DNA from: a virus
IMG/VR virus record: IMGVR_UViG_3300025000_000065
Coordinates: 1-64,000 of that record
Length of the DNA stretch: 64,000 nucleotides
Direction: 5' to 3' (one strand)
The notes under the pieces were generated by a model. The model saw only the letters and a program-made list of their open reading frames with translations, ran no database searches and was not told the DNA's origin. Position 1 is the stretch's first letter. The number at the start of each line of letters is the position of its first letter. The translations under genes were made by a program, and so were the position numbers. Of this stretch, positions 2,726 through 60,428 are shown one piece after another.

Positions 2726-3490
2726 TTAAACTGTATAAAAATTCTTTTTTTTATTACTATAATATTTTTTTGCATTTTCATTTATTTCTTTTTTTCTTTT
2801 TTCCTTAAAACATTTTTCACACATTTTTTTGTTCTTTCCTGTTTTTTCAATTTCAATTCCACAAATTTCACAATATGGTTTGTAATAATCAATAAAATTA
2901 TTAAAATTTTCAATAATTATTTTTGGATCGGAATTATCATTTTTATTAATATTAACAATGTAATATGCACCATCATTTCCAAAATTAGTATTAATTATAT
3001 TTTTTTCTAAAAGTTGGTTAAATATCCATTCTTTATTTTTTTCATTAGTTTTTGCAAATTTTAATATATGATAAGGAGTTGTTTTCAAAGTATAGTAATT
3101 AGTATTATTTTCATCAAAATTTTTACCAATAATAAAATAATACTTTGATAAAACAAGCATTATAAAAAGTATTTTTTCAAGGCGATAATTTTTTATGTTT
3201 CTAATTATATTAAATTCGTTCTCAGTAACTACTATGTTTTGAAATTTTTTTATTTTACTTTTCTTAGATGTTTTTATAATATTTAATAAAAATTCTTGAT
3301 ATAATATTTCATTATAGTTTTCTTGACGTTCTAATAGCCAGTTATTTATTTTATTGTATATTTCAGATTCTTCCACACCAATGTTTCTAAAATACATAAT
3401 TAATAATCTAATATCTTTTCCATTCATAAAAGAAGATAAACAATTATTGAACATATTTTTAGCATATGAAAACTCATCCAAAATAATCAT
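2726..3490 (-). CDS. Unknown protein with C-terminal zinc ribbon
   Basis: 254 aa. The first 190 residues are helical and Lys/Asn/Ile-rich. Near the C-terminus a CEIC-(12-14)-CEKC pair forms a zinc ribbon, followed by a Lys-rich tail. The start ATG at 3490 lies inside the 3' end of the RNA polymerase gene (17-nt overlap), so the two are translationally coupled. A role as an accessory factor of the polymerase is inferred from position only. Confidence 0.55.
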   Translation of the reverse strand: MIILDEFSYAKNMFNNCLSSFMNGKDIRLLIMYFRNIGVEESEIYNKINNWLLERQENYNEILYQEFLLNIIKTSKKSKIKKFQNIVVTENEFNIIRNIKNYRLEKILFIMLVLSKYYFIIGKNFDENNTNYYTLKTTPYHILKFAKTNEKNKEWIFNQLLEKNIINTNFGNDGAYYIVNINKNDNSDPKIIIENFNNFIDYYKPYCEICGIEIEKTGKNKKMCEKCFKEKRKKEINENAKKYYSNKKKNFYTV

Positions 3491-6251
3491 AAATTTCTCC
3501 AGTGTAATCAGTGATTTCTATTGTTTTCATTTCATATTTGTTACCCAAATAATTAATGCTTCCTTTTATATCTAAGAATGGAACTTTTACTTCGTCTTGC
3601 TTATTTTTTATAATATTGCTTATTAAATCTTCTCCAAAAACATTCCATAAAAAAGATTTATTGTCAGATGGATGAATAACGTAGCAAATATCAACTGCTA
3701 AATTTGCCAATTCAGATCCATTAGAAGAGATATCATTAGCCAAATTTCTAAAATGGGAATTAAATTGTTCTACGGTTTCATAATTATAATCATAATGTTG
3801 CTGATTTTTTTTATTTATATTTTTCTTTTCTTTTTTATATTGTTTATAAAGATCATATAATTTTTTTAATTTTTCTTTATCTGTATTAATTTCACTGTCT
3901 TTTAATATCAAGATATTTTCTTCACTTACTTTATTAAAATCTTCTGATTTCATTTCTTTTATAGAATTTATCATAAAATTTGAAACATTATTCATAACAC
4001 AATTGGTTTCTAAAAAAGGACTTAATGCATAATATTTATTTACAAAAGATAGTTCTTTTTCACTTAATTGAGTTTTATCTTTTTTATATTGATCAAGAAT
4101 ATCTTCTAATTTCTTCTTAAACTGTGTTCTTACATGAATTAAGTCTATGGACTTATAATAATTATTAAATTTTACATTATATTTTGGATATAGCCATCTC
4201 ATAAAATGAACACGTTGGTTTATACAAATGGCATTTAAAAATTCTTTTTCTTTTATTATTTCTTCGCTATCGGTTTCTTTTATCTTATTCCATTTTGTCC
4301 AATGCATAGGAAATGGTTTAATTTCTAATCCTTTAGTTGCATCAATTGTGCTTCCCTGTTCTTTTCTAAAACATTTCAATCTTTTTATGATTTCATTATA
4401 TTCTTTTGATTCTTCTTCAAATTTAGGCAGAAGAGCAGATGCTGTAGTACCGACATTTGTAACAAATCCAACAGAATTATTGAATCCTCGGATATCAGAT
4501 AAATATAATTCGTTTTTATTAATTATTTTTTTAGGTGCTTTTTTATTTTCATAATCCACAGGTAATCCACCGTACACACCATTTATTATTTCTTTATTAT
4601 TTGTGATACAAACTATGTCTCCATCAAAATCAGATCCACCATGAATTAAACAATCATTTCCAAAAATATTATATACAACACAGTTATCTAAATATTGAAA
4701 CCATTCTTTTATTTTTTCATTATATTTTAAATTAAGAATATTTACTTCACTTCTCCAGATAAGAGGAGCTCTCATTCCTGCTAGTATATATTCTCCTTTA
4801 TTCACCCAATATTTATTATAATGTTCTCCTCTTTGTAATAATCCTTTTATTGGAAGATCAAATATATATTCCAAAAAAGCATAAGGATCAGAAACCATCA
4901 TAGTGTAAGATCCATCAATTATTAACTTTCCTATATATGATTGTTTAATTTTTTTATTTAAACTATGAACAATGTTGTTTTGTACATATGGATCTTTTAA
5001 TAACTGATTATTTAAGATAATGGCTTTTACAACCTTATCATTAATCTTATTGAAAATATTTTTATCATATTCTCCATCAGACATTCTTCCAAGAAAATAT
5101 AATAAAGTTTTTGATATATCAGATTTAATAATACTTTTAAAATATTTTACAGTTGGGGAGCAAAGATTTTCAATAGATTGATTATCAAGATTTAATGCTT
5201 GAATAAACTGATAATTTAAAAAAGTATGCTTTTTCTCATGTTTTGGAGCAACCCTGGTAATAGACCATTGTAAATTATTCGACTTAGATTTTTTCTTATA
5301 TTCTGAAATTGAAGAAAAGGCATTCCATAATTTAAATTGAGATTGTGTTAAAATAACGTCCATGTCTCGAATATTAACATTATTTCCATAAATATCAGTA
5401 ATAAATCTTTTTCCTATTTTATCAGAAAATTTATGAAAATCAATTACGACAACCAGTCCTTTTATAAAATTTGATCGAACAATAAAAGAAGATGGAATAT
5501 AGTCTAGTTCTAATTCTTCAGCCCAATGTTTAGCCATTTTAGGAGATATGATTCCTTGACCGTCCCATAAATTAAAAGTAATATCTCTGTCCATTTCAAT
5601 TACTTCGTCATCGCCATTTTCTATTTCTTTTACAAAATCAACTCTTTCTGTTCTGACAACTTCTTTGTCTGGAACTACACAAAAATAAGGTTCAGAAACA
5701 GGAATAGATGCAGATGTAGATAAACTAAAATAAGCATTATATTTTTCAGGAGTTATCTCGATATCATTTCTATCATTATTTAAAATTGAATACATTTTTT
5801 CTTCATATTCCTGATCAATGTATAAAGCATTATTTCTTCTTGCTTGACCTGCTCCACAAGCAAATCTAATATATTTTTTGTTATTTAATATAAAACCATT
5901 TTTCCCAATATATTTATAATGTCTTATATCATCTACAAAAATTGAAATGATTTCAGGAACAAATAATAAATCTCTTAATTTTTGTTCTGTTTCCAATAAT
6001 TCTTTCAGGTTTTCTTTATTATGAGATCTTCTTTTTATTTTTCTTTTTTCTGATAATAATATATCAATTTCATCAGTATCAATATTTATACCTTTTATTT
6101 GTCTAAGAGTTCTCAACATTTGAGAATCACCTAAAGAAATAATTTTTGAAGATTTTTGCGCCTCTTCAAAAGACATTGTTATATTATAATTTGAATGATT
6201 TAATTGAGTTGTTGAAATTTTAAAAATGTAATACTGTTGAAGTTTTTTCAA
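3474..6251 (-). CDS. RdRp/YonO-like two-barrel RNA polymerase
   Basis: The protein (925 aa from the TTG at 6251) shows the ordered landmarks of QDE-1/YonO-type polymerases: FACGAGQARR (130-139), like the RdRp SxxQxR stretch; LWDGQGIIS (228-236), like the SDGxGxIS motif; PSSFIVR followed by KG (264-265); AGMRAPLIWRSEV; and the metal-binding DFDGD (541-545) in GGSDFDGDIVCI. The DxDGD triad is shared by cellular RNAP beta-prime, eukaryotic RdRp and SPbeta YonO, which is a DNA-dependent RNA polymerase. The probable role is transcription of phage genes. The frame extends to a TTG at 6314, but that start has no ribosome site; the TTG at 6251 is preceded by AAGGGA. A T15-16 run at about 6283-6298 lies in that extension and could also mark an assembly error. 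Confidence 0.8.
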   Translation of the reverse strand: MKKLQQYYIFKISTTQLNHSNYNITMSFEEAQKSSKIISLGDSQMLRTLRQIKGINIDTDEIDILLSEKRKIKRRSHNKENLKELLETEQKLRDLLFVPEIISIFVDDIRHYKYIGKNGFILNNKKYIRFACGAGQARRNNALYIDQEYEEKMYSILNNDRNDIEITPEKYNAYFSLSTSASIPVSEPYFCVVPDKEVVRTERVDFVKEIENGDDEVIEMDRDITFNLWDGQGIISPKMAKHWAEELELDYIPSSFIVRSNFIKGLVVVIDFHKFSDKIGKRFITDIYGNNVNIRDMDVILTQSQFKLWNAFSSISEYKKKSKSNNLQWSITRVAPKHEKKHTFLNYQFIQALNLDNQSIENLCSPTVKYFKSIIKSDISKTLLYFLGRMSDGEYDKNIFNKINDKVVKAIILNNQLLKDPYVQNNIVHSLNKKIKQSYIGKLIIDGSYTMMVSDPYAFLEYIFDLPIKGLLQRGEHYNKYWVNKGEYILAGMRAPLIWRSEVNILNLKYNEKIKEWFQYLDNCVVYNIFGNDCLIHGGSDFDGDIVCITNNKEIINGVYGGLPVDYENKKAPKKIINKNELYLSDIRGFNNSVGFVTNVGTTASALLPKFEEESKEYNEIIKRLKCFRKEQGSTIDATKGLEIKPFPMHWTKWNKIKETDSEEIIKEKEFLNAICINQRVHFMRWLYPKYNVKFNNYYKSIDLIHVRTQFKKKLEDILDQYKKDKTQLSEKELSFVNKYYALSPFLETNCVMNNVSNFMINSIKEMKSEDFNKVSEENILILKDSEINTDKEKLKKLYDLYKQYKKEKKNINKKNQQHYDYNYETVEQFNSHFRNLANDISSNGSELANLAVDICYVIHPSDNKSFLWNVFGEDLISNIIKNKQDEVKVPFLDIKGSINYLGNKYEMKTIEITDYTGEIYDYFG

Positions 6252-6329
6252 ATTGAAAATTTCCCTTGTTGTAATATTCTTTTTTTTTTTTTTTACCAAT
6301 AAAAAATAACTCAATAAATAGAAAGTAAT

Positions 6330-7017: not shown

Positions 7018-7059
7018 GAAGAAATAAGTTTTAGAAAAAAGTATCGTTCTTCTTGACAA
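7011..7059. promoter_or_regulatory. Operator-like inverted repeat between divergent promoters
   Basis: Perfect 13-bp arms (TTGTCAAGAAGAA at 7011-7023 and its complement at 7047-7059) with a 23-bp centre. Each arm carries the -35 hexamer of one of the two divergent promoters, so a protein bound here would control both. Confidence 0.6.
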
Positions 7060-7080
7060 CAATGGAATATCATGTTATAA
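7053..7080 (+). promoter_or_regulatory. Sigma70-like promoter for the winged-helix gene
   Basis: TTGACA (7053-7058), 16 bp, TTATAA (7075-7080). The -35 box lies in the right arm of the inverted repeat. It shows that the ATG at 7059 cannot be the normal start of the following gene. Confidence 0.6.
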
Positions 7081-7133
7081 ATTTGTTTGCTATGAAAAAT
7101 AGCATTATTAAAAAAAATATAAAAAGGAAAAAT

Positions 7134-7655
7134 ATGATTAATCAAGAAAATAAAGGTTATTTTGAAGATGGATCTGGTCTTGAATATTTTAAAGTGTATA
7201 AAGACATGTTGAACCATTATGGAGTAATTCCTTCAATGGTATTTTCAGTTATTGCCAATTATTCAAAATATGCAATGTCTGGAGATAAAAGATGCTGTAC
7301 TAAATCAGAAGTTGCTATAGGAAATGAACTTCAATTAAGTTGGTCAAGTGTAAGAAAAGCCATCAAACTTTTATTAAAAGACAAGTTAATTGAAAAAGTC
7401 AATAAATCTCAAATGACTTTAGAAGAGAAATTAAATAGTGCTAACTGGTACAGACCTGTTTCAAAAAATATTTATCAATTGAAAAATAAAGAAAAAAAGA
7501 CTTATCTAAAAACAAATTATCAAAGACAAAGATATCAGGAAACAGGTCGTGAAAAAATTAAAGAAAACATCAAAGAAAAGATAAATCAAAAAGAAAAGGA
7601 AAAGGAAAAAGAAAATAAAAAAGGTGAAGAAAATAATGATGAATATTCCTGGTAA
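7134..7655 (+). CDS. Winged-helix, replication-initiator-like protein
   Basis: 173 aa from the ATG at 7134, chosen for the AAAAAGGAAAAAT site; the frame is open further upstream, but that part is promoter DNA. Residues about 28-95 (GVIPSMVFSVIANYSKY...TKSEVAIGNELQLSWSSVRKAIKLLLKDKLIE) form a winged helix-turn-helix of the HTH_36/DnaD/replication-protein type. The C-terminal 45 residues are an extreme Lys/Glu repeat. Five iterons begin 25 nt after its stop, an arrangement typical of Rep proteins and their origins. The alternative is a repressor acting at the divergent promoter region just upstream. Confidence 0.6.
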   Translation: MINQENKGYFEDGSGLEYFKVYKDMLNHYGVIPSMVFSVIANYSKYAMSGDKRCCTKSEVAIGNELQLSWSSVRKAIKLLLKDKLIEKVNKSQMTLEEKLNSANWYRPVSKNIYQLKNKEKKTYLKTNYQRQRYQETGREKIKENIKEKINQKEKEKEKENKKGEENNDEYSW

Positions 7656-7680
7656 AAATTTAAAAAACTTAAAAACTATC

Positions 7681-7788
7681 GTTGTTAAAAAGAACAATTC
7701 ATTGTTGTTAAAAAGAACTATGTATTGTTGTTAAAAAGAACAATACATAGTTGTTAAAAAGAACAATACACCTGTTGTTAAAAAGAAC
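7681..7788. repeat. Five iterons: candidate replication origin
   Basis: GTTGTTAAAAAGAAC occurs five times without mismatch at 7681, 7704, 7727, 7750 and 7774, so periods are 23, 23, 23 and 24 bp (about two helical turns). Linkers of 8-9 bp vary; linkers two and three are reverse complements of each other. A degenerate TTAAAAGAA series follows to about 7850. Position directly after a winged-helix gene matches plasmid-type Rep/iteron origins. Confidence 0.7.
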
Positions 7789-7960: not shown

Positions 7961-8236
7961 ATGAGCGAGATAAATGTAAAAATAATTAAGTGTGATAGTT
8001 GTGGAGGAATCATTCCTGGTAAGTTTTATATAGATCAGGATAAGTTTATTAATCTTTCTGAAGTAAAAGCAAAAGATTCTATGGAAAATAACTTAGACTT
8101 TTGTTTTGAATGTTGGAAGTATTATGCCAGAAGAGCCAGAGGAAGGATTGATACAGTAGAATTGATCAATGCTGAATTAGGTTTCAATATTACTGAATAT
8201 AAGGTTATTGGTTGTAGTGAAGAAGAATTAATTTAG
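7961..8236 (+). CDS. Zinc-finger protein (91 aa), unknown
   Basis: AAAAAGGAAATT site before ATG 7961. Two cysteine pairs, CDSC (residues 11-14) and CFEC (about 48-51), frame a likely zinc ribbon; a basic RRARGR patch follows. It is the first gene after the iterons. Function unknown. Confidence 0.6.
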   Translation: MSEINVKIIKCDSCGGIIPGKFYIDQDKFINLSEVKAKDSMENNLDFCFECWKYYARRARGRIDTVELINAELGFNITEYKVIGCSEEELI

Positions 8237-8271
8237 AAATAGAATTAGTGTAGATATATGGGAGGTATAAT

Positions 8272-8586
8272 ATGAGTGTTAAAAATAATAGTGGTAAAAA
8301 TAATACTGGTAATAATAAAGAACAAATGTATCAACAATGTCTTCTGAGAAAAAGATCTGGAAATGTAAGTATTCTTGATGTTAGTTGGATTCCTGTAGAG
8401 TATGCTGTTGTTGGTAAGGTTTTGAAGTTAAAAAAAGAAGAAGGAAAATTAGATCAATCAGGTGAATGGAAAAGTGGTTGGGATGATGGTTGGATTGTTA
8501 TAAAAGTATATGGGGTGAGAAGTGAAAGTGATATTGTGAAGATGAATTGGGATTATAGAAAGTGGAGTGAAATTGGTTCTTCATGA
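8272..8586 (+). CDS. Hypothetical protein (104 aa)
   Basis: GGGAGGT site before ATG 8272. The N-terminal 20 residues are Asn/Lys/Gly-rich and probably disordered; the rest (SILDVSWIPVEYAVVGKVLKL...GWDDGWIVIKVYG) looks like a compact beta domain seen in other phage proteins of unknown role. Stop overlaps the next start (ATGA). Confidence 0.6.
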   Translation: MSVKNNSGKNNTGNNKEQMYQQCLLRKRSGNVSILDVSWIPVEYAVVGKVLKLKKEEGKLDQSGEWKSGWDDGWIVIKVYGVRSESDIVKMNWDYRKWSEIGSS

Positions 8587-8654
8587 TTGACCTAATTATT
8601 GTTATTGGTTTGTTTTTATTAATTTGGTTAATTTTTTTGTTATTGGGTTATTAG
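8583..8654 (+). CDS. Tiny membrane peptide (23 aa)
   Basis: ATG overlaps the stop of the previous gene. The product is a single hydrophobic helix (MIDLIIVIGLFLLIWL...). It enters the C-free region, so coding status is uncertain. Confidence 0.4.
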   Translation: MIDLIIVIGLFLLIWLIFLLLGY

Positions 8655-9668
8655 GGTTATTAAGGGGAAAGGTTTTATTTTAGTGTTTTATAATTTTAGG
8701 TGTAATTTTTGTTGTTAGTATATTTTTTATAGTTTTTTGGTTTATGTTTTTTTATGTGAAGGTTTTTGTTAGTGATTTTGTGTAGTTTTATTTGAGGTTT
8801 TTGTGTTTGTTTAGGGGGTTTTGGATTGTTTTTGTTGTGAAGTTTGGAGGGGGGTTTATTGAGGGGATTTTGGTGATGTTTTGGATGAGGAAGTTAAGGG
8901 GGTTTTGTAGGGTGTGTGAGTTGATGTGCCATACCTGGTTTTCGAATCTGTTTTCAATTAAATCACGTAAACATACGCCTATCAATCTCATGTTATGCCA
9001 TGCTATACGCTCATATAACTTGCCATAATATACACATTATGACAACTTTTAAGGCTATTTTAAAGGATTTTAAAGCGATTCTATTGGTTGTATGTATAGA
9101 ATGATCATTCAAGGCTGATTGATACCAGGATTGACTATTCTTAACTTGTTGATTGATATCCAATGTCATGCCATAGGTTGACTATATACCAGTATGCAAT
9201 GGTATAGCATCCTGTTTAAGCATGATTTAAAGGATTTTAAACGGTTTATATAGTGATATGATATATAATGACCTATTGACTATATAAACGCCTTAGAATG
9301 GCTTAAACGATGATTGATTAATGGTATTTTTGGAGATTAAAAGTATATCACAACGTGATATATCATGACGTGATACATCGTATAACATGCTGTTTTCTGG
9401 AGAAGCACTATATAACTACTATGTAATACATAATACTGATTGTTAAATAATTTACACTTGTAAAATAAAATACATTTATAAATCATTTAACAATTCATAC
9501 CAATACATCAATCAATACATCAATCCTTAACTATCAATCAATACCATCAATTAAAGTATAACCAGGGTTACACTATTCAATACATCAATCCAACAATACA
9601 ACCTTAACCAACAATCAATACAATCCAACAATCCAACAACTTAACCAACAATCCAATAAACAAATTAA
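8655..9668. other. Gene-free region with extreme strand asymmetry; origin or terminus candidate
   Basis: No supported gene. From 8593 to 8928 the plus strand contains no C and has several G4-G6 runs. From 9479 to 9668 it has almost no G. The 550-bp core between them has mixed composition, a 16-bp direct repeat (9059-9074 and 9226-9241), and palindromes. The right part carries three copies of CAATACATCAATC (9501, 9513, 9578) and two of TTAACCAACAATC (9604, 9641). It ends at a bidirectional terminator. Confidence 0.6.
9344..9380. promoter_or_regulatory. Palindromic sites in the gene-free region
   Basis: TATATCAC and GTGATATA form a palindrome with a 3-bp centre (9344-9362). A second related site (ATATCATGACGTGATA) overlaps its right end, giving two similar sites about 18 bp apart. 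Possible binding sites for an unknown protein. Confidence 0.45.
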
Positions 9669-9715
9669 AAAAAATAAAATCCTGATAATTTTTTTCTACC
9701 AGGATTTTATTTTTT
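9669..9715. terminator. Bidirectional intrinsic terminator
   Basis: Perfect 16-bp arms (9669-9684 and 9700-9715) around a 15-nt loop, with CCTG/CAGG at the top and A/T tracts on both outer sides. It closes the minus-strand gene array at 9766-11399 and would also stop plus-strand transcription. Confidence 0.75.
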
Positions 9716-52474: not shown

Positions 52475-54568
52475 ATGAAATATGTTTTAAATGAGCCAAA
52501 GGTTGCGTTAGAAAGTTTTCGACATTATTTACGTGGAACTAAAAAGGTTGGTAAAGCACAACCACTATATTCAAAAATTCAAACTCCTTATGGCGAAAAA
52601 ACAATGGGAGAAATGAATGTTGGAGATGAAATTTTTACTATTGATGGAACTGTAACAAAAATCACTGATGTTTTTCCCCAAGGTGTTAAAGATATTTATG
52701 AAGTTACCTTTTCTGATGGAAGCAAAACAAGATGTTCGGAAGATCATTTGTGGTCTGTTAGAACTAAAAAAATGAAGATCCTCGGAAAGGGATTTAATCG
52801 AATTATGACTTTAGGAGAAATTAAAAAAGATTATTTTTCTTTGGAGAAAGACGGCTATAGACATCCTAAATTTGAAATTCCCATTGCAAGTGCCGTAGAA
52901 TTTGAAAAAAGAGAAATTCCATTAGATCCCTATTTGCTAGGATTATTGTTGGGAGATGGATATATCTGTGGAAGAGTTGTTGGATTTTCCAATACAGAAG
53001 AAGATGTTTTAGAGAAAATTGAAAAAATATCTTTTGAAAAATATGGATGTGGTTTTGTTAAAAATTCAGAGCATAATTGCACGCATCATATAAAAAAACC
53101 AGATGGAGAATACAGAAATCCAATTCGAACAAAATTATCAGAATTGGGATTATTGGGATTAAAATCAAAAGATAAATTTATTCCCCAAGAATATTTATAC
53201 AATGATTATTCAACAAGATTATCTATATTACAAGGATTAATGGATACAGATGGACACATTAGTCAAGAGGGACAAGTTAATTTTTCTTCAACATCTTTAC
53301 AATTAATTGAAAATGTAAAGTGGTTAGTTCATTCCTTGGGAGGTCTTGCCACAATTCATGAAGATGCTAGAATTGGAAAAGAATCTTATTACTTAATTAT
53401 TAGAGCAAATGGATTTGTACCCGTCACATCAGAAAAACATTCTCCAAAATTTGAAAAACATAATCCAAATTTAACTAGATTTATTTCCAATATTGAATAC
53501 ATTGGTAAAGAAGAATGTCAATGTATTAAAGTTGAAGATGATTCAGAATTATATTTAACAGATGAGTTTATTGTTACCCATAATAGCACGTTGTTCCGAG
53601 ATTTAATTGTCGAATATTATGGAGATCCAAAATATGGATTAATGATTGCTCCAGGCAATGAAACAGGTTTTAAAGCCTTAGATAATCTGTATGCTATGGA
53701 AGCTCAAACATGGGAAGATTTCTGCGAAATTGTTAATGATTTAGTATTGAATAAGGCAGACAATGAATTTAAGATTATAGCAATTGATACCGTGGATGAA
53801 CTAATTGCAATTGCAGAAGAAAAAGTATTGAAAATTCATTATCAACGAAAAGGCGAAAAGGCAACTTCTATCAATGCTGCTTTAGGTGGATATGGAGCAG
53901 GAAAGAAAATGCTTCGTAAACTCATCAATGATAAAATCAAAGAAGTTGAAAATGCAGGTTATACCTGGTTTTTCGTTGGACATACGAAAGTTCGTGATAT
54001 TAAAGAAAAGGGACAAGAGGAATCATATCAACAATTAACTTCCAATCTTGAGTTTGATTATGATGCATTATTTACAGATAAAGCAGACATTATTGCCTCT
54101 TGTTACATAGAAAGAAACGTAAAAGATAATTCTTTAGAATCAACTACACGATACATTTATTTTCGCCCTAATGGTTTTGTTGATGCAGGAAGTCGTTTCA
54201 AAGATATGCCAGAGCGTGTTCCTATGACTGCACGTGATTACATTAGTGCTTTTGAACAAGGTGCAAAAGGAACTTATACAAAACCATTGACGAAAAAAGA
54301 ATTGGATAAACGAAAGAAACAAGAAGAAACAGAACGTCAAGAACAAGCTCAAAAATTTACTGAAGCCAAAAAATCTAATTTTGAAGGATTAGAAACAGTT
54401 GAAGATTATCACAAAAAGATTCAGGAAATGAAAGAAGCATTGGACTCTGAGACTGCACGTGAAAAAGGTGAGCAATTAAAAGAAGCTGGATTGCCTCTAA
54501 GATTTAAAGAAATTGAAGATCTCGAACAACTAAAATTATTCTTAAAAATCGTTTCTTCAGACGATTAA
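52475..54568 (+). CDS. Sak4-like RecA-fold ATPase with intein
   Basis: 697 aa precursor. After removal of residues 28-370 the host protein is 354 aa and restores the Walker A motif GTKKVGKS (G21-K27 joined to Ser371). Walker B-like IIAIDTVDELI and WFFVGHTKVRDI follow. The fold and neighbours (SSB-like gene upstream, helicase/primase downstream) fit the Sak4/AAA_24 recombinases that promote single-strand annealing with SSB. The C-terminal 120 residues are charged and coiled-coil-like. Without splicing the ATP site would be destroyed. Confidence 0.7.
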   Translation: MKYVLNEPKVALESFRHYLRGTKKVGKAQPLYSKIQTPYGEKTMGEMNVGDEIFTIDGTVTKITDVFPQGVKDIYEVTFSDGSKTRCSEDHLWSVRTKKMKILGKGFNRIMTLGEIKKDYFSLEKDGYRHPKFEIPIASAVEFEKREIPLDPYLLGLLLGDGYICGRVVGFSNTEEDVLEKIEKISFEKYGCGFVKNSEHNCTHHIKKPDGEYRNPIRTKLSELGLLGLKSKDKFIPQEYLYNDYSTRLSILQGLMDTDGHISQEGQVNFSSTSLQLIENVKWLVHSLGGLATIHEDARIGKESYYLIIRANGFVPVTSEKHSPKFEKHNPNLTRFISNIEYIGKEECQCIKVEDDSELYLTDEFIVTHNSTLFRDLIVEYYGDPKYGLMIAPGNETGFKALDNLYAMEAQTWEDFCEIVNDLVLNKADNEFKIIAIDTVDELIAIAEEKVLKIHYQRKGEKATSINAALGGYGAGKKMLRKLINDKIKEVENAGYTWFFVGHTKVRDIKEKGQEESYQQLTSNLEFDYDALFTDKADIIASCYIERNVKDNSLESTTRYIYFRPNGFVDAGSRFKDMPERVPMTARDYISAFEQGAKGTYTKPLTKKELDKRKKQEETERQEQAQKFTEAKKSNFEGLETVEDYHKKIQEMKEALDSETAREKGEQLKEAGLPLRFKEIEDLEQLKLFLKIVSSDD
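52556..53584 (+). mobile_element. Intein with LAGLIDADG homing endonuclease (343 aa)
   Basis: Inserted exactly in the Walker A codons. Block A is AQPLYSKIQTPYG, so the first residue is Ala28, not Cys or Ser; block B has SEDHLW; two LAGLIDADG motifs are LLGLLLGDGYI (154-164) and LQGLMDTDGHI (252-262); the end is TDEFIVTHN followed by Ser371. An N-terminal Ala indicates direct attack by the +1 Ser (class 2 or 3 type) rather than the classic N-S shift. The endonuclease appears intact. Confidence 0.8.
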
Positions 54569-58018: not shown

Positions 58019-58717
58019 TTGAAAAAAGAATTCAATAAAGTTTATAACATTGATTTCTTTGAAGGAATGTCTTCTATAAAAAATGATTTTATAGATTTAT
58101 TACTTACAGATCCTCCATATGGAATAAACTTAACTCCTCAAAGACGAAATAGTAAATTTAAAAATACCAAAATAAAAAATGATAATAATTTAGATTGGTT
58201 AGAATCTTTTGTCAATGAATCTTATAGGATTATGAAAAATGCTGGATTTATTTTTTGTAATTGGCAAAAATATGATATTTTCAAACAAGCATTTGAAAAA
58301 AAATTTATTATCAAAAACCTTATAGTTTGGGATAAGATGTGGTTTGGAATGGGAAATAACTTTAGACCCAATCATGAATTTATTATGCTTATATGTAAAA
58401 CAAATATTACAATAAAATCAAATAATTTATCTAATATTTTATCTTTTAGAAGACTTCATCCATCTAAAATGATTCATTCCTGCGAAAAGCCAGTTCCATT
58501 ATTGCAATTATTAATTAATGAAACAACTAACGAAGAAGATATTATTTTAGATCCCTTTGCTGGAAGTGGAAGTTGTCTAGAGGCAAGCTTAAAAACAAAA
58601 AGAAAATTTATTGGATTTGATAATGGCAAAAATGAAAAAACCAATGAACATTGGGCTGATATAGCAAATCAAAGATGTCTTAATGTAAAAATAAAAGGAG
58701 AAACAAATGAATTATAA
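58019..58717 (+). CDS. Solitary beta-class DNA methyltransferase (N6A or N4C)
   Basis: TTG start after AAAGGAGAAAATT. 232 aa. DPPYGI (31-36, motif IV) comes before HSCEKPVPLLQLLI and DPFAGSGS (178-185, motif I), the beta-class order. No restriction endonuclease adjacent, so self-protection against host restriction or regulation. Target base and site unknown. Confidence 0.8.
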   Translation: MKKEFNKVYNIDFFEGMSSIKNDFIDLLLTDPPYGINLTPQRRNSKFKNTKIKNDNNLDWLESFVNESYRIMKNAGFIFCNWQKYDIFKQAFEKKFIIKNLIVWDKMWFGMGNNFRPNHEFIMLICKTNITIKSNNLSNILSFRRLHPSKMIHSCEKPVPLLQLLINETTNEEDIILDPFAGSGSCLEASLKTKRKFIGFDNGKNEKTNEHWADIANQRCLNVKIKGETNEL

Positions 58718-60428
58718 ATTGCTAAATAAAAATTATAAAGAAGAGTTAGAAAATAAAACAATTAAGGAATTTATTTTATCTAACAGAAATATTGAAAATC
58801 CAAGTATCTATTTATCTCTTACAAAAGACAATGTTCATCATTATTCTTTATTAGAAAATATTGATAAAGCAAAAAATGTCTTGTTAGAAACAATAAAGAA
58901 TAAAGGAAAAATCGGAATTATTGTGGATGTAGATGTAGACGGATTCTCTTCGGCATCTATTCTATATCAATATCTTGCAAGAAATTATGATCAATCAAAA
59001 TTGTCTTATTTTATTCATACTAAAAAACAACATGGTATTTCAGATTTGTTATCTCAAATATTAAAATCAAAAATTAATCTTTTAATTGTTCCAGATGCAG
59101 GAACAAACGACACTAAGGAATGTAAAATTCTTCAAGAAAAAAATATTCAAGTAATTGTATTAGACCATCACCAGGTAGAAGAAGAAAATCCATATGCTAT
59201 TGTTGTAAATAATCAACTTGGAAATTATCCCAATAAATATCTCAGTGGAGCAGGCGTAACTAAAAAATTCCTAGAAAGTTTAGATGATGAATTATGGGAT
59301 GATTCAAGTGACTTTGATGATCTAGTTGCTATATCAATTATTGCAGATTCCATGTCCATATTAGAATATGAAAACCGTTATCTGGTTACAAAGGGTTTAA
59401 AAAATATTAGAAATAAATTTATTCAAGCAATTATAGAAAAACAATCTTATTCAATTGGCAACACAGATAATATCAATGTTAATATAGTTGCATTTTATAT
59501 TTCTCCATTAATCAATGCTTTAATTAGATCGGGTTCTTTAGAAGAAAAAGAATTAATGTTCAGAGCTTTTATTAATGATCCAGAAACTTTTCCATATAAA
59601 AAACGAAGCGGAGAAGAAATTCAGGAAACAATGCAAGAAATGGTTGCCAGATTAGCAACTAATTTAAAAGCCAAACAGAATAGAGAAATTGATAAGTCTT
59701 TAGAATATTTACGTGGATTAATTGATAAGAACGAATGGAATAAAAACAAGATTTTATTTGTTGATGCTGATGGAGTGGATTATAGTTTCACAGGATTAAC
59801 AGCAATGAAACTTGCTTCAGAATATCAAAAGCCTTGTCTATTAATTAGAAAAAATAGGGACAATGTTTTTGCTGGATCTGCGAGAAATTATGGAAATCAA
59901 ATTGAAAACCTTAAAGATTATTTATTGGAAACAGGGTATTTTGAATATGCTCAAGGGCATCCATCGAGTTTCGGATTAGGAATAAAAATTGAAAATATAA
60001 AACCTGCACTAGAAAAATTAAATGAACAATTGAAAGACATTAACTTTGGAGAATTTATTCATTATATTGATTTTGAAATTAGCATAGAAAATTTAAGCGT
60101 TGAAATAATTAAAGATATGAATGAACTTTATGACTATTATGGAAATGGAATTGAAGAAAGTTTAGTGTTAGTAAAAAATATTCCAGTAAATACAACTAAT
60201 ATTGAACTTATGGGAAAAACAGAAGACACATGGAAATTCCTGTATAATAATGAAATTCAATTTATCAAATTTAAAAACAATAAAGATGATGCTATTATGA
60301 AAGCAAGACAAAACGATTGGTCTGGAGCAAATTTAAAAATTAATGCTATCTGTAAATTAAGCATGAACGAATATGGTGGAGTTAGAATTCCTCAATGTAT
60401 TGTTGTTGATTATGAAAGTATAGAATAG
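58707..60428 (+). CDS. recJ: RecJ-like single-strand exonuclease
   Basis: AAAAGGAGAAAC site, overlaps the methyltransferase by 11 nt. 573 aa. DHH-superfamily motifs: VDVDVDGFSSA (Asp74, 76, 78), VPDAGTND (Asp130), LDHHQVEEEN (Asp153, His154, His155) and LSGAGVTKKF; a C-terminal DHHA1-like GSARN segment follows. Degrades ssDNA 5'-3' with manganese; in phages it may prepare ends for recombination. Confidence 0.8.
   Translation: MNYKLLNKNYKEELENKTIKEFILSNRNIENPSIYLSLTKDNVHHYSLLENIDKAKNVLLETIKNKGKIGIIVDVDVDGFSSASILYQYLARNYDQSKLSYFIHTKKQHGISDLLSQILKSKINLLIVPDAGTNDTKECKILQEKNIQVIVLDHHQVEEENPYAIVVNNQLGNYPNKYLSGAGVTKKFLESLDDELWDDSSDFDDLVAISIIADSMSILEYENRYLVTKGLKNIRNKFIQAIIEKQSYSIGNTDNINVNIVAFYISPLINALIRSGSLEEKELMFRAFINDPETFPYKKRSGEEIQETMQEMVARLATNLKAKQNREIDKSLEYLRGLIDKNEWNKNKILFVDADGVDYSFTGLTAMKLASEYQKPCLLIRKNRDNVFAGSARNYGNQIENLKDYLLETGYFEYAQGHPSSFGLGIKIENIKPALEKLNEQLKDINFGEFIHYIDFEISIENLSVEIIKDMNELYDYYGNGIEESLVLVKNIPVNTTNIELMGKTEDTWKFLYNNEIQFIKFKNNKDDAIMKARQNDWSGANLKINAICKLSMNEYGGVRIPQCIVVDYESIE

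What the first reader, a model, noticed from the sequence alone, without database searches (positions are those of the whole stretch)
8593..8928. 336-nt stretch of the plus strand without a single C
The run is G+T+A only, includes G4-G6 runs, and is not coding. At normal local C content such a run is essentially impossible by chance. Possible causes: strand-specific cytosine deamination during long single-strand exposure (an origin, D-loop or R-loop), or selection for G-quadruplex/ssDNA-binding function.
Basis: seen in the sequence. Interest (0 to 1): 0.75.

Follow-up and report, generated by a model that had tools for sequence, protein, structure and literature searches.

The report
C-free flank of phage genome end
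A 336-base stretch with no C lies directly beside what is probably the point where this bacterial virus's DNA is cut to start and finish packaging, and relatives including the classic phage SPβ show the same one-sided base composition there, which gives a testable sequence for a packaging site that had only been mapped roughly.

Summary
It is not an artefact: a diverged relative (89% identical here) keeps a 277-nt C-free run at the same place, and none of 24 substitutions introduces C, against 47 of 103 involving C next door.

The run ends in a conserved box, GGGTGTG..TGATGTGC (8910-8929), followed by a C-run box, an inverted repeat and a G-free stretch. Ten phage types carry this box (SPβ, BUCT082, E3, metagenomic relatives). 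Two more phages have it diverged (Perkons) or shortened (Sundance), and there the annotated start of the genome's direct terminal repeat falls inside it. In SPβ it lies in the yonP-yonR interval to which the pac site was mapped. The strongest GC-skew switch of the whole Perkons and SPβ genomes sits at this point (+17 and +8 nt); in Sundance it ranks fourth.

Best reading: the late-side flank of the genome end/packaging site, probably kept C-free because this strand becomes the single-stranded 3' end. Location is well supported; mechanism is inferred. Simple C-to-T deamination and G-quadruplexes are not supported. A rep-iteron origin lies 1.1 kb upstream.

The parts
8593..8928 (+). C-free G/T-rich arm (late-gene side of the putative genome end)
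   Evidence: homologous 277-nt C-free run in L009 8624-8900
8194..8592 (+). C-poor extension of the arm, including the C-free runs 8194-8305 and 8460-8578 and the small gene 8272-8586 with no C in third codon positions
8910..8929 (+). box 1, GGGTGTGTGAGTTGATGTGC: putative terminase cut site; GGGTGTG occurs once in 111,969 nt
   Evidence: direct terminal repeat starts of Perkons and Sundance fall in their counterparts
8965..8979 (+). box 2, ACGTAAACATACGCC (counterpart of ATGTAAATATACCCCC in SPβ)
   Evidence: multiple alignment
9020..9045 (.). box 3, inverted repeat TTGCCATAATATACACATTATGACAA
   Evidence: sequence; conserved in L009 and L015 and nearly so in L014
8930..9460 (.). core with no GC skew (possible terminal-repeat segment; not shown for this phage)
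9461..9683 (-). G-poor A/C arm (C-poor on the minus strand), early-gene side
   Evidence: G-free run of 124 nt in L009 9462-9585
9669..9715 (.). intrinsic-terminator-like hairpin separating the element from leftward genes
   Evidence: I14; conserved in L009
7681..7788 (+). iteron-like array, 4.7 copies of a 23-nt repeat
   Evidence: arrays of period 21-23 nt in L006, L007, L014, L015
7053..7655 (+). replication-initiation-like protein gene
   Evidence: PHROG 428, E 6e-5
3474..6314 (-). YonO-like single-chain RNA polymerase gene
   Evidence: followed by an HU-like gene, as in SPβ
58707..60428 (+). RecJ-like ssDNA exonuclease gene (candidate end-resection enzyme)
   Evidence: PHROG 2484, E 1e-153
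52475..54568 (+). ATPase gene with a Sak4-like ssDNA-annealing domain
   Evidence: PHROG 124, E 4e-20 over residues 395-663

Best explanation
The C-free stretch is the late-gene-side flank of the phage's genome end, the site where terminase cuts concatemeric DNA for packaging (pac, or the start of a direct terminal repeat). The site is built as: C-free, G-rich strand; cut box GGGTGTG..TGATGTGC; skew-neutral core; G-free stretch (that is, the other strand becomes C-poor). Shown: this anatomy, its conservation, and that the genome ends annotated in two relatives fall in the box. Inferred: that terminase cuts here in this phage. More weakly inferred: the C-poor strands are those that end 3' on either side of the cut. 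When ends are resected 5' to 3' (the phage encodes a RecJ-like exonuclease) or left unreplicated, these strands become single-stranded; lacking C they cannot fold, and they stay available for annealing or strand exchange (Sak4-like or RecA-like proteins) when ends join into circles or concatemers. A terminal repeat would carry both roles at once, which would explain the neutral core. The composition is therefore most likely kept by selection.
For: Box 1 at the edge of a C-poor, G-rich arm in W, L009, L006, L014, L015, SPβ, BUCT082, Goe14, E3 and SPβ-type prophages. Direct terminal repeat starts inside the counterpart box in Perkons (GATAGATGA|GCTTAGGG) and Sundance (CTGGGTGT|GTTCGTGCC); Sundance ends rest on read pileups. 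The SPβ copy lies between yonP and yonR, where restriction mapping placed pac (PMC8270828). Genome-wide scans for a GC-skew switch: best peak of all at +17 nt from the Perkons terminal repeat and at +8 nt from the SPβ box. Mean G-C per 100 nt: +26 before the box, about 0 for 300 nt, -12 after. No substitution involving C in the arm, 0/24 against 47/103. The arm is unstructured as ssDNA: -0.8 kcal/mol, against -21 for the next 291 nt. RecJ-like and Sak4-like genes are present.
Against: No reads or physical ends are available for this phage, and its contig lacks most late genes. Sundance's arm is only weakly C-poor (12%) and ranks fourth in its genome. Perkons has a diverged box (CTGTGTGG), found by looking at its known end, and the two cut positions differ by several nt relative to the box. 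Lactococcus 949 and L47, KKP_3916 and vB_BcoS-136 show no such box in the stretches examined. How Perkons's repeat was determined is not documented in the held literature. The ssDNA role is not tested, and the near-absence of structure follows directly from the absence of C. Part of the plus-strand skew matches ordinary coding-strand bias upstream.
Confidence: 0.68

Rival explanations
1. Mutational origin: the plus strand is repeatedly single-stranded (R-loop, D-loop or resected end) and its cytosines are lost by deamination, without selection for composition.
For: C depletion ramps up over hundreds of nt towards the box and reaches synonymous sites of the gene upstream; T is in great excess in W and L009.
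Against: Arm G+C is close to genome G+C in ten phages, and T does not exceed A in SPβ, BUCT082 or Sundance, so C is replaced by G as much as by T. No back-mutation to C is seen in 24 changes although T is over half of the sites.
Confidence: 0.15
2. The stretch belongs to the replication origin: rep gene plus iterons upstream, with the C-free strand as a strand-specific opening or priming zone.
For: A replication-initiation-like gene and iteron-like arrays lie 0.7-2 kb upstream in all five metagenomic members.
Against: SPβ and Perkons have the skew switch as genome-wide maximum without an iteron array there. The skew changes from G-rich to C-rich along the plus strand, the opposite of the usual origin pattern.
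Confidence: 0.12
3. Transcription-related element: an R-loop-forming or untranslated RNA read rightwards through the arm, for instance by the phage's YonO-like polymerase, priming replication or marking the concatemer junction.
For: A G-rich non-template strand favours R-loops (general knowledge). A YonO-like polymerase gene lies nearby; the YonO promoter is unknown and YonO lacks most msRNAP domains (PMC5467207). A terminator hairpin follows.
Against: No Rfam match; the plus strand of the core folds no better than shuffles (z -0.67). The mirror-image G-poor arm would need a second, opposite transcript. No promoter was identified.
Confidence: 0.12
4. G-quadruplex element selected for its fold.
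For: G runs of 4-6 in the window and several G3+ runs in each member.
Against: No motif of four G3+ tracts with loops of 1-7 in any of 11 members; two-tetrad types in only four.
Confidence: 0.03
5. Assembly or sequencing artefact.
For: None beyond the extreme composition.
Against: An identical 28-kb contig in another record, and a diverged relative from another metagenome with its own 277-nt C-free run.
Confidence: 0.01

Closest known systems
pac region of Bacillus phage SPβ (yonP-yonR interval)
   Same: Same box 1, box 2 and a C-poor arm; genome-wide maximum of the skew switch; next to the YonO polymerase/HU late operon
   Different: SPβ arm keeps 7% C and is A/G-rich; no rep-iteron module there; presumed headful packaging; the pac sequence itself had not been identified (PMC8270828)
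Short direct terminal repeat ends of Psychrobacillus phage Perkons (264 bp) and Brevibacillus phage Sundance (323 bp)
   Same: Repeat start falls in the counterpart of box 1; G-rich arm on the late side; box-2-like C-run about 50 nt inside the repeat
   Different: Arms have 5% and 12% C; Perkons box 1 is diverged; whether our phage has a terminal repeat is unknown
T7-type concatemer junctions
   Same: Terminal redundancy flanked by special sequence; 3' strands exposed at both ends (general knowledge)
   Different: No sequence relation tested; T7 flanks are not known to me to be C-free
R-loop origins (phage T4 oriF, lactococcal phage c2)
   Same: Strand-asymmetric non-coding DNA next to replication functions (recalled, not tested)
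   Different: No promoter or transcript shown here; mirror-image second arm

Membership tests
SPβ-type genome end / pac site | Shared boxes GGGTGTG..GTGC, ATGTAAA..C-run and inverted repeat in order | tested here: met
   alignment; in W box 2 is degenerate (ACGTAAACATACGCC) and the inverted repeat is only loosely matched in the SPβ group
SPβ-type genome end / pac site | Position between YonO/HU late operon and early genes | tested here: met
SPβ-type genome end / pac site | Known relatives' physical ends fall at the box | tested here: met
   Perkons and Sundance repeat starts; SPβ only by published coarse mapping
SPβ-type genome end / pac site | Terminase cuts at the site in this phage | not testable with these tools
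   no reads or virion DNA
Short direct terminal repeat (T7-like) packaging | Duplicated terminal sequence at both genome ends | not testable with these tools
   contig is a linear fragment without most late genes; no end repeat recorded
Iteron-type replication origin | Rep gene next to direct repeats of about 22 nt | tested here: met
   but 1.1 kb upstream of the finding, not at it
G-quadruplex element | Four G3+ tracts with loops of 1-7 nt, conserved | tested here: not met
Structured non-coding RNA (Rfam) | Match to a family or unusually stable fold of the plus strand | tested here: not met
Deamination signature (D-loop-like) | C loss balanced by T gain, lowering G+C | tested here: not met
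   arm G+C close to genome G+C; T excess only in some members

The most novel reading that the evidence does not exclude
A large group of Gram-positive siphophages, most with YonO-like polymerases, keeps a strand code at its genome ends: on each side of the terminase site the strand that ends 3' is G-rich and depleted of C, to complete absence in the extreme case. This would keep the exposed end unfolded and recombination-ready, a compositional rather than sequence-specific 'telomere' in linear phage DNA.
Probability: 0.3. Interest if true: 0.8.

Novelty: new variant of a known kind. Interest (0 to 1): 0.57.

Why it matters
The SPβ packaging site has been known only by coarse restriction mapping and was reported to show no similarity to the SPP1 pac (PMC8270828). 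This work gives a precise candidate cut box and shows that base composition alone marks it in whole-genome scans of Perkons and SPβ. It would allow end prediction in metagenomic relatives and makes it testable whether strand composition near phage ends is selected.

Tried and rejected
Rfam search: no match. RNA folding of the core: plus strand no better than shuffles, minus strand z -3.8, probably from DNA inverted repeats. G4 motifs: none conserved. Repeated oligonucleotide sites in the arm as terminase small-subunit binding sites: not above dinucleotide shuffles. Window DNA against known phages: only 69% over 177 nt of Sundance. Lactococcus 949/L47 and Alicyclobacillus KKP_3916 record ends and the vB_BcoS-136 stretches: no box. 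Tyrovirus Tsamsa, with known ends, was not found under the accessions tried. Enterocloster PMBT24: AT-only tracts near its polymerase, no comparable skew. Thomasclavelia TR-TP2: a C-poor G/T non-coding zone but on the opposite strand relative to its polymerase, left aside. BUCT082 record ends do not repeat.

Full report
Observation. The plus strand has no C from 8593 to 8928, 336 nt, the longest such run in the 64-kb window and in the whole 111,969-nt virus record. Given the window's own base contexts, about 1e-11 such runs are expected. The run is A 17, G 29, T 54%. It contains no ORF of 80 aa or more, and its complement has no G and so no usual start codon. Two more C-free runs, 8194-8305 and 8460-8578, precede it, and the gene 8272-8586 has no C in 105 third codon positions. 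On the other side, 9461-9683 has 1.8% G.

Reality. The record 3300025010_000200 is identical over 16.3 kb. A diverged relative from another metagenome (L007/L009, 70-88% identical in aligned blocks) has a 277-nt C-free run at the homologous place and a 124-nt G-free run downstream. In the aligned arms, 24 substitutions involve only A, G and T; in the adjoining core 47 of 103 involve C. C is thus actively excluded, by selection or by a very strong strand bias.

Setting. Leftwards of the element lies a gene for a 946-aa YonO-like single-chain RNA polymerase (27-34% identical to SPβ YonO and a BUCT082 protein), followed by an HU-like gene, as in the SPβ late operon. Rightwards, after a terminator hairpin (9669-9715) and a few leftward genes, lie the early and replication genes, including a DnaB-like helicase, primase, RecJ-like exonuclease and DNA polymerase. 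Upstream of the arm are a replication-initiation-like gene (7053-7655) and a 23-nt repeat array (7681-7788). A similar gene with arrays of period 21-23 nt is found in all five metagenomic members, not in SPβ or Perkons at this place.

The box. At the right edge of the arm stands GGGTGTGTGAGTTGATGTGC; GGGTGTG occurs once in the contig. An exact-pattern scan of IMG/VR found only the three close relatives. Looser inspection found the box at the edge of a C-poor arm in L014, L015, SPβ, BUCT082, Goe14 and Geobacillus virus E3. A second pattern in IMG/VR gave 56 hits. Those in SPβ-like prophages and E3 have upstream skew of 0.5-0.7, apart from one cluster of four at 0.20; chance-like hits in other genomes have skew near 0. 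An alignment shows three boxes in order: aGGGTGTG..A.T.GA.GTGCTa, ATGTAAA followed by a C- or G-run, and a looser inverted repeat.

The genome end. In Psychrobacillus phage Perkons the annotated 264-bp direct terminal repeat begins at GATAGATGA|GCTTAGGG, and in Brevibacillus phage Sundance the 323-bp repeat begins at CTGGGTGT|GTTCGTGCC; both lie in the counterpart of box 1. Sundance's ends come from read pileups (PMC4616168); the method for Perkons is not documented in the papers held. In SPβ the box lies between yonP and yonR, where restriction mapping put the pac site, whose sequence was not identified and does not resemble the SPP1 pac (PMC8270828). As a test that does not use the box, I scanned both strands of whole genomes for the strongest change from G-rich to C-rich: the top position is 17 nt from the Perkons repeat start and 8 nt from the SPβ box, among some 51,000 positions each (5,700 bp of Perkons and 5,900 bp of SPβ were not held). 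In Sundance the site is fourth, 102 nt away.

Profile. Averaged over ten phages, G minus C per 100 nt climbs from about +6 at -1000 to +26 just before the box, falls to near 0 for 200-300 nt, the length of the known terminal repeats, goes to -12 and returns to about 0 by +1100. This mirror symmetry is what would be seen if the 3'-ending strand on each side of the cut is the C-poor one and the repeat, which ends both ways, is neutral. The correspondence between the neutral zone and the repeat's end is only approximate in Perkons, and in our phage the neutral zone is about 500 nt.

Mechanism. The arm G+C is close to the genome's (for example 28.3 against 28.4% in W, 33.0 against 34.3% in SPβ), so C is exchanged for G rather than simply converted to T, and the A/T balance differs between phages. 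Plain deamination is therefore unlikely as the general cause, though it may contribute in W and L009. As single-stranded DNA the arm is unstructured (-0.8 kcal/mol, against -21 for the adjoining 291 nt). RecA-type proteins favour TG-rich strands (PMC3763553), but G/T richness is strong only in W, L009 and L006. I commit to: terminase site, with the flanking 3' strands kept C-poor for use as single strands after resection or incomplete replication. The location is about 0.68 likely; the single-strand rationale, taken alone, about 0.3.

Comparison with the known. It works like, and by shared boxes and position probably belongs with, the SPβ pac/genome-end region and the ends of Perkons and Sundance. 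The direct test, end mapping in this phage, could not be made. The complete absence of C over 336 nt is the most extreme form seen among the members examined. I found no report of such composition at phage ends in a limited literature search.

Noticed in passing
window 7053-7788: Replication-initiation-like gene followed by a 23-nt iteron-like array, a plasmid-type origin conserved next to the genome end in five related viral contigs.
   Followed up: partly
window 3474-6314 (-): YonO-like single-chain RNA polymerase, 34% identical to a protein of BUCT082 and 27% to SPβ YonO.
   Followed up: partly
L007 6298-7395: In the relative, the polymerase gene is interrupted by about 1.1 kb containing a 254-aa ORF, like an intron or intein insertion.
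   Followed up: no
L046, L050, L074, L086: 41-44 kb Bacillus viral contigs carry a copy of the SPβ genome-end cassette (box 1 plus 119 nt, 82-83% identical) with only weak skew; in L046, L050 and L074 it lies beside a tape-measure gene homolog, in L050 also beside GIY-YIG and integrase genes; a second packaging site, satellite or remnant.
   Followed up: partly
window 9344-9379: Overlapping palindromic repeats ATATCACAACGTGATATATCATGACGTGATA, conserved in L009; possible regulator binding sites.
   Followed up: no
L023 3401-4200: Thomasclavelia phage TR-TP2 has a C-poor (3-4%) G/T-rich non-coding zone upstream of its polymerase, in the opposite orientation relative to it.
   Followed up: partly
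L020 9308-9425: 118 nt of only A and T just upstream of the RNA polymerase gene in Enterocloster phage PMBT24.
   Followed up: no
L017 (DIUG01000037.1): A contig binned as a Patescibacteria genome encodes a 67% identical YonO-like polymerase; probably phage DNA mis-binned, or a hint at a host.
   Followed up: no
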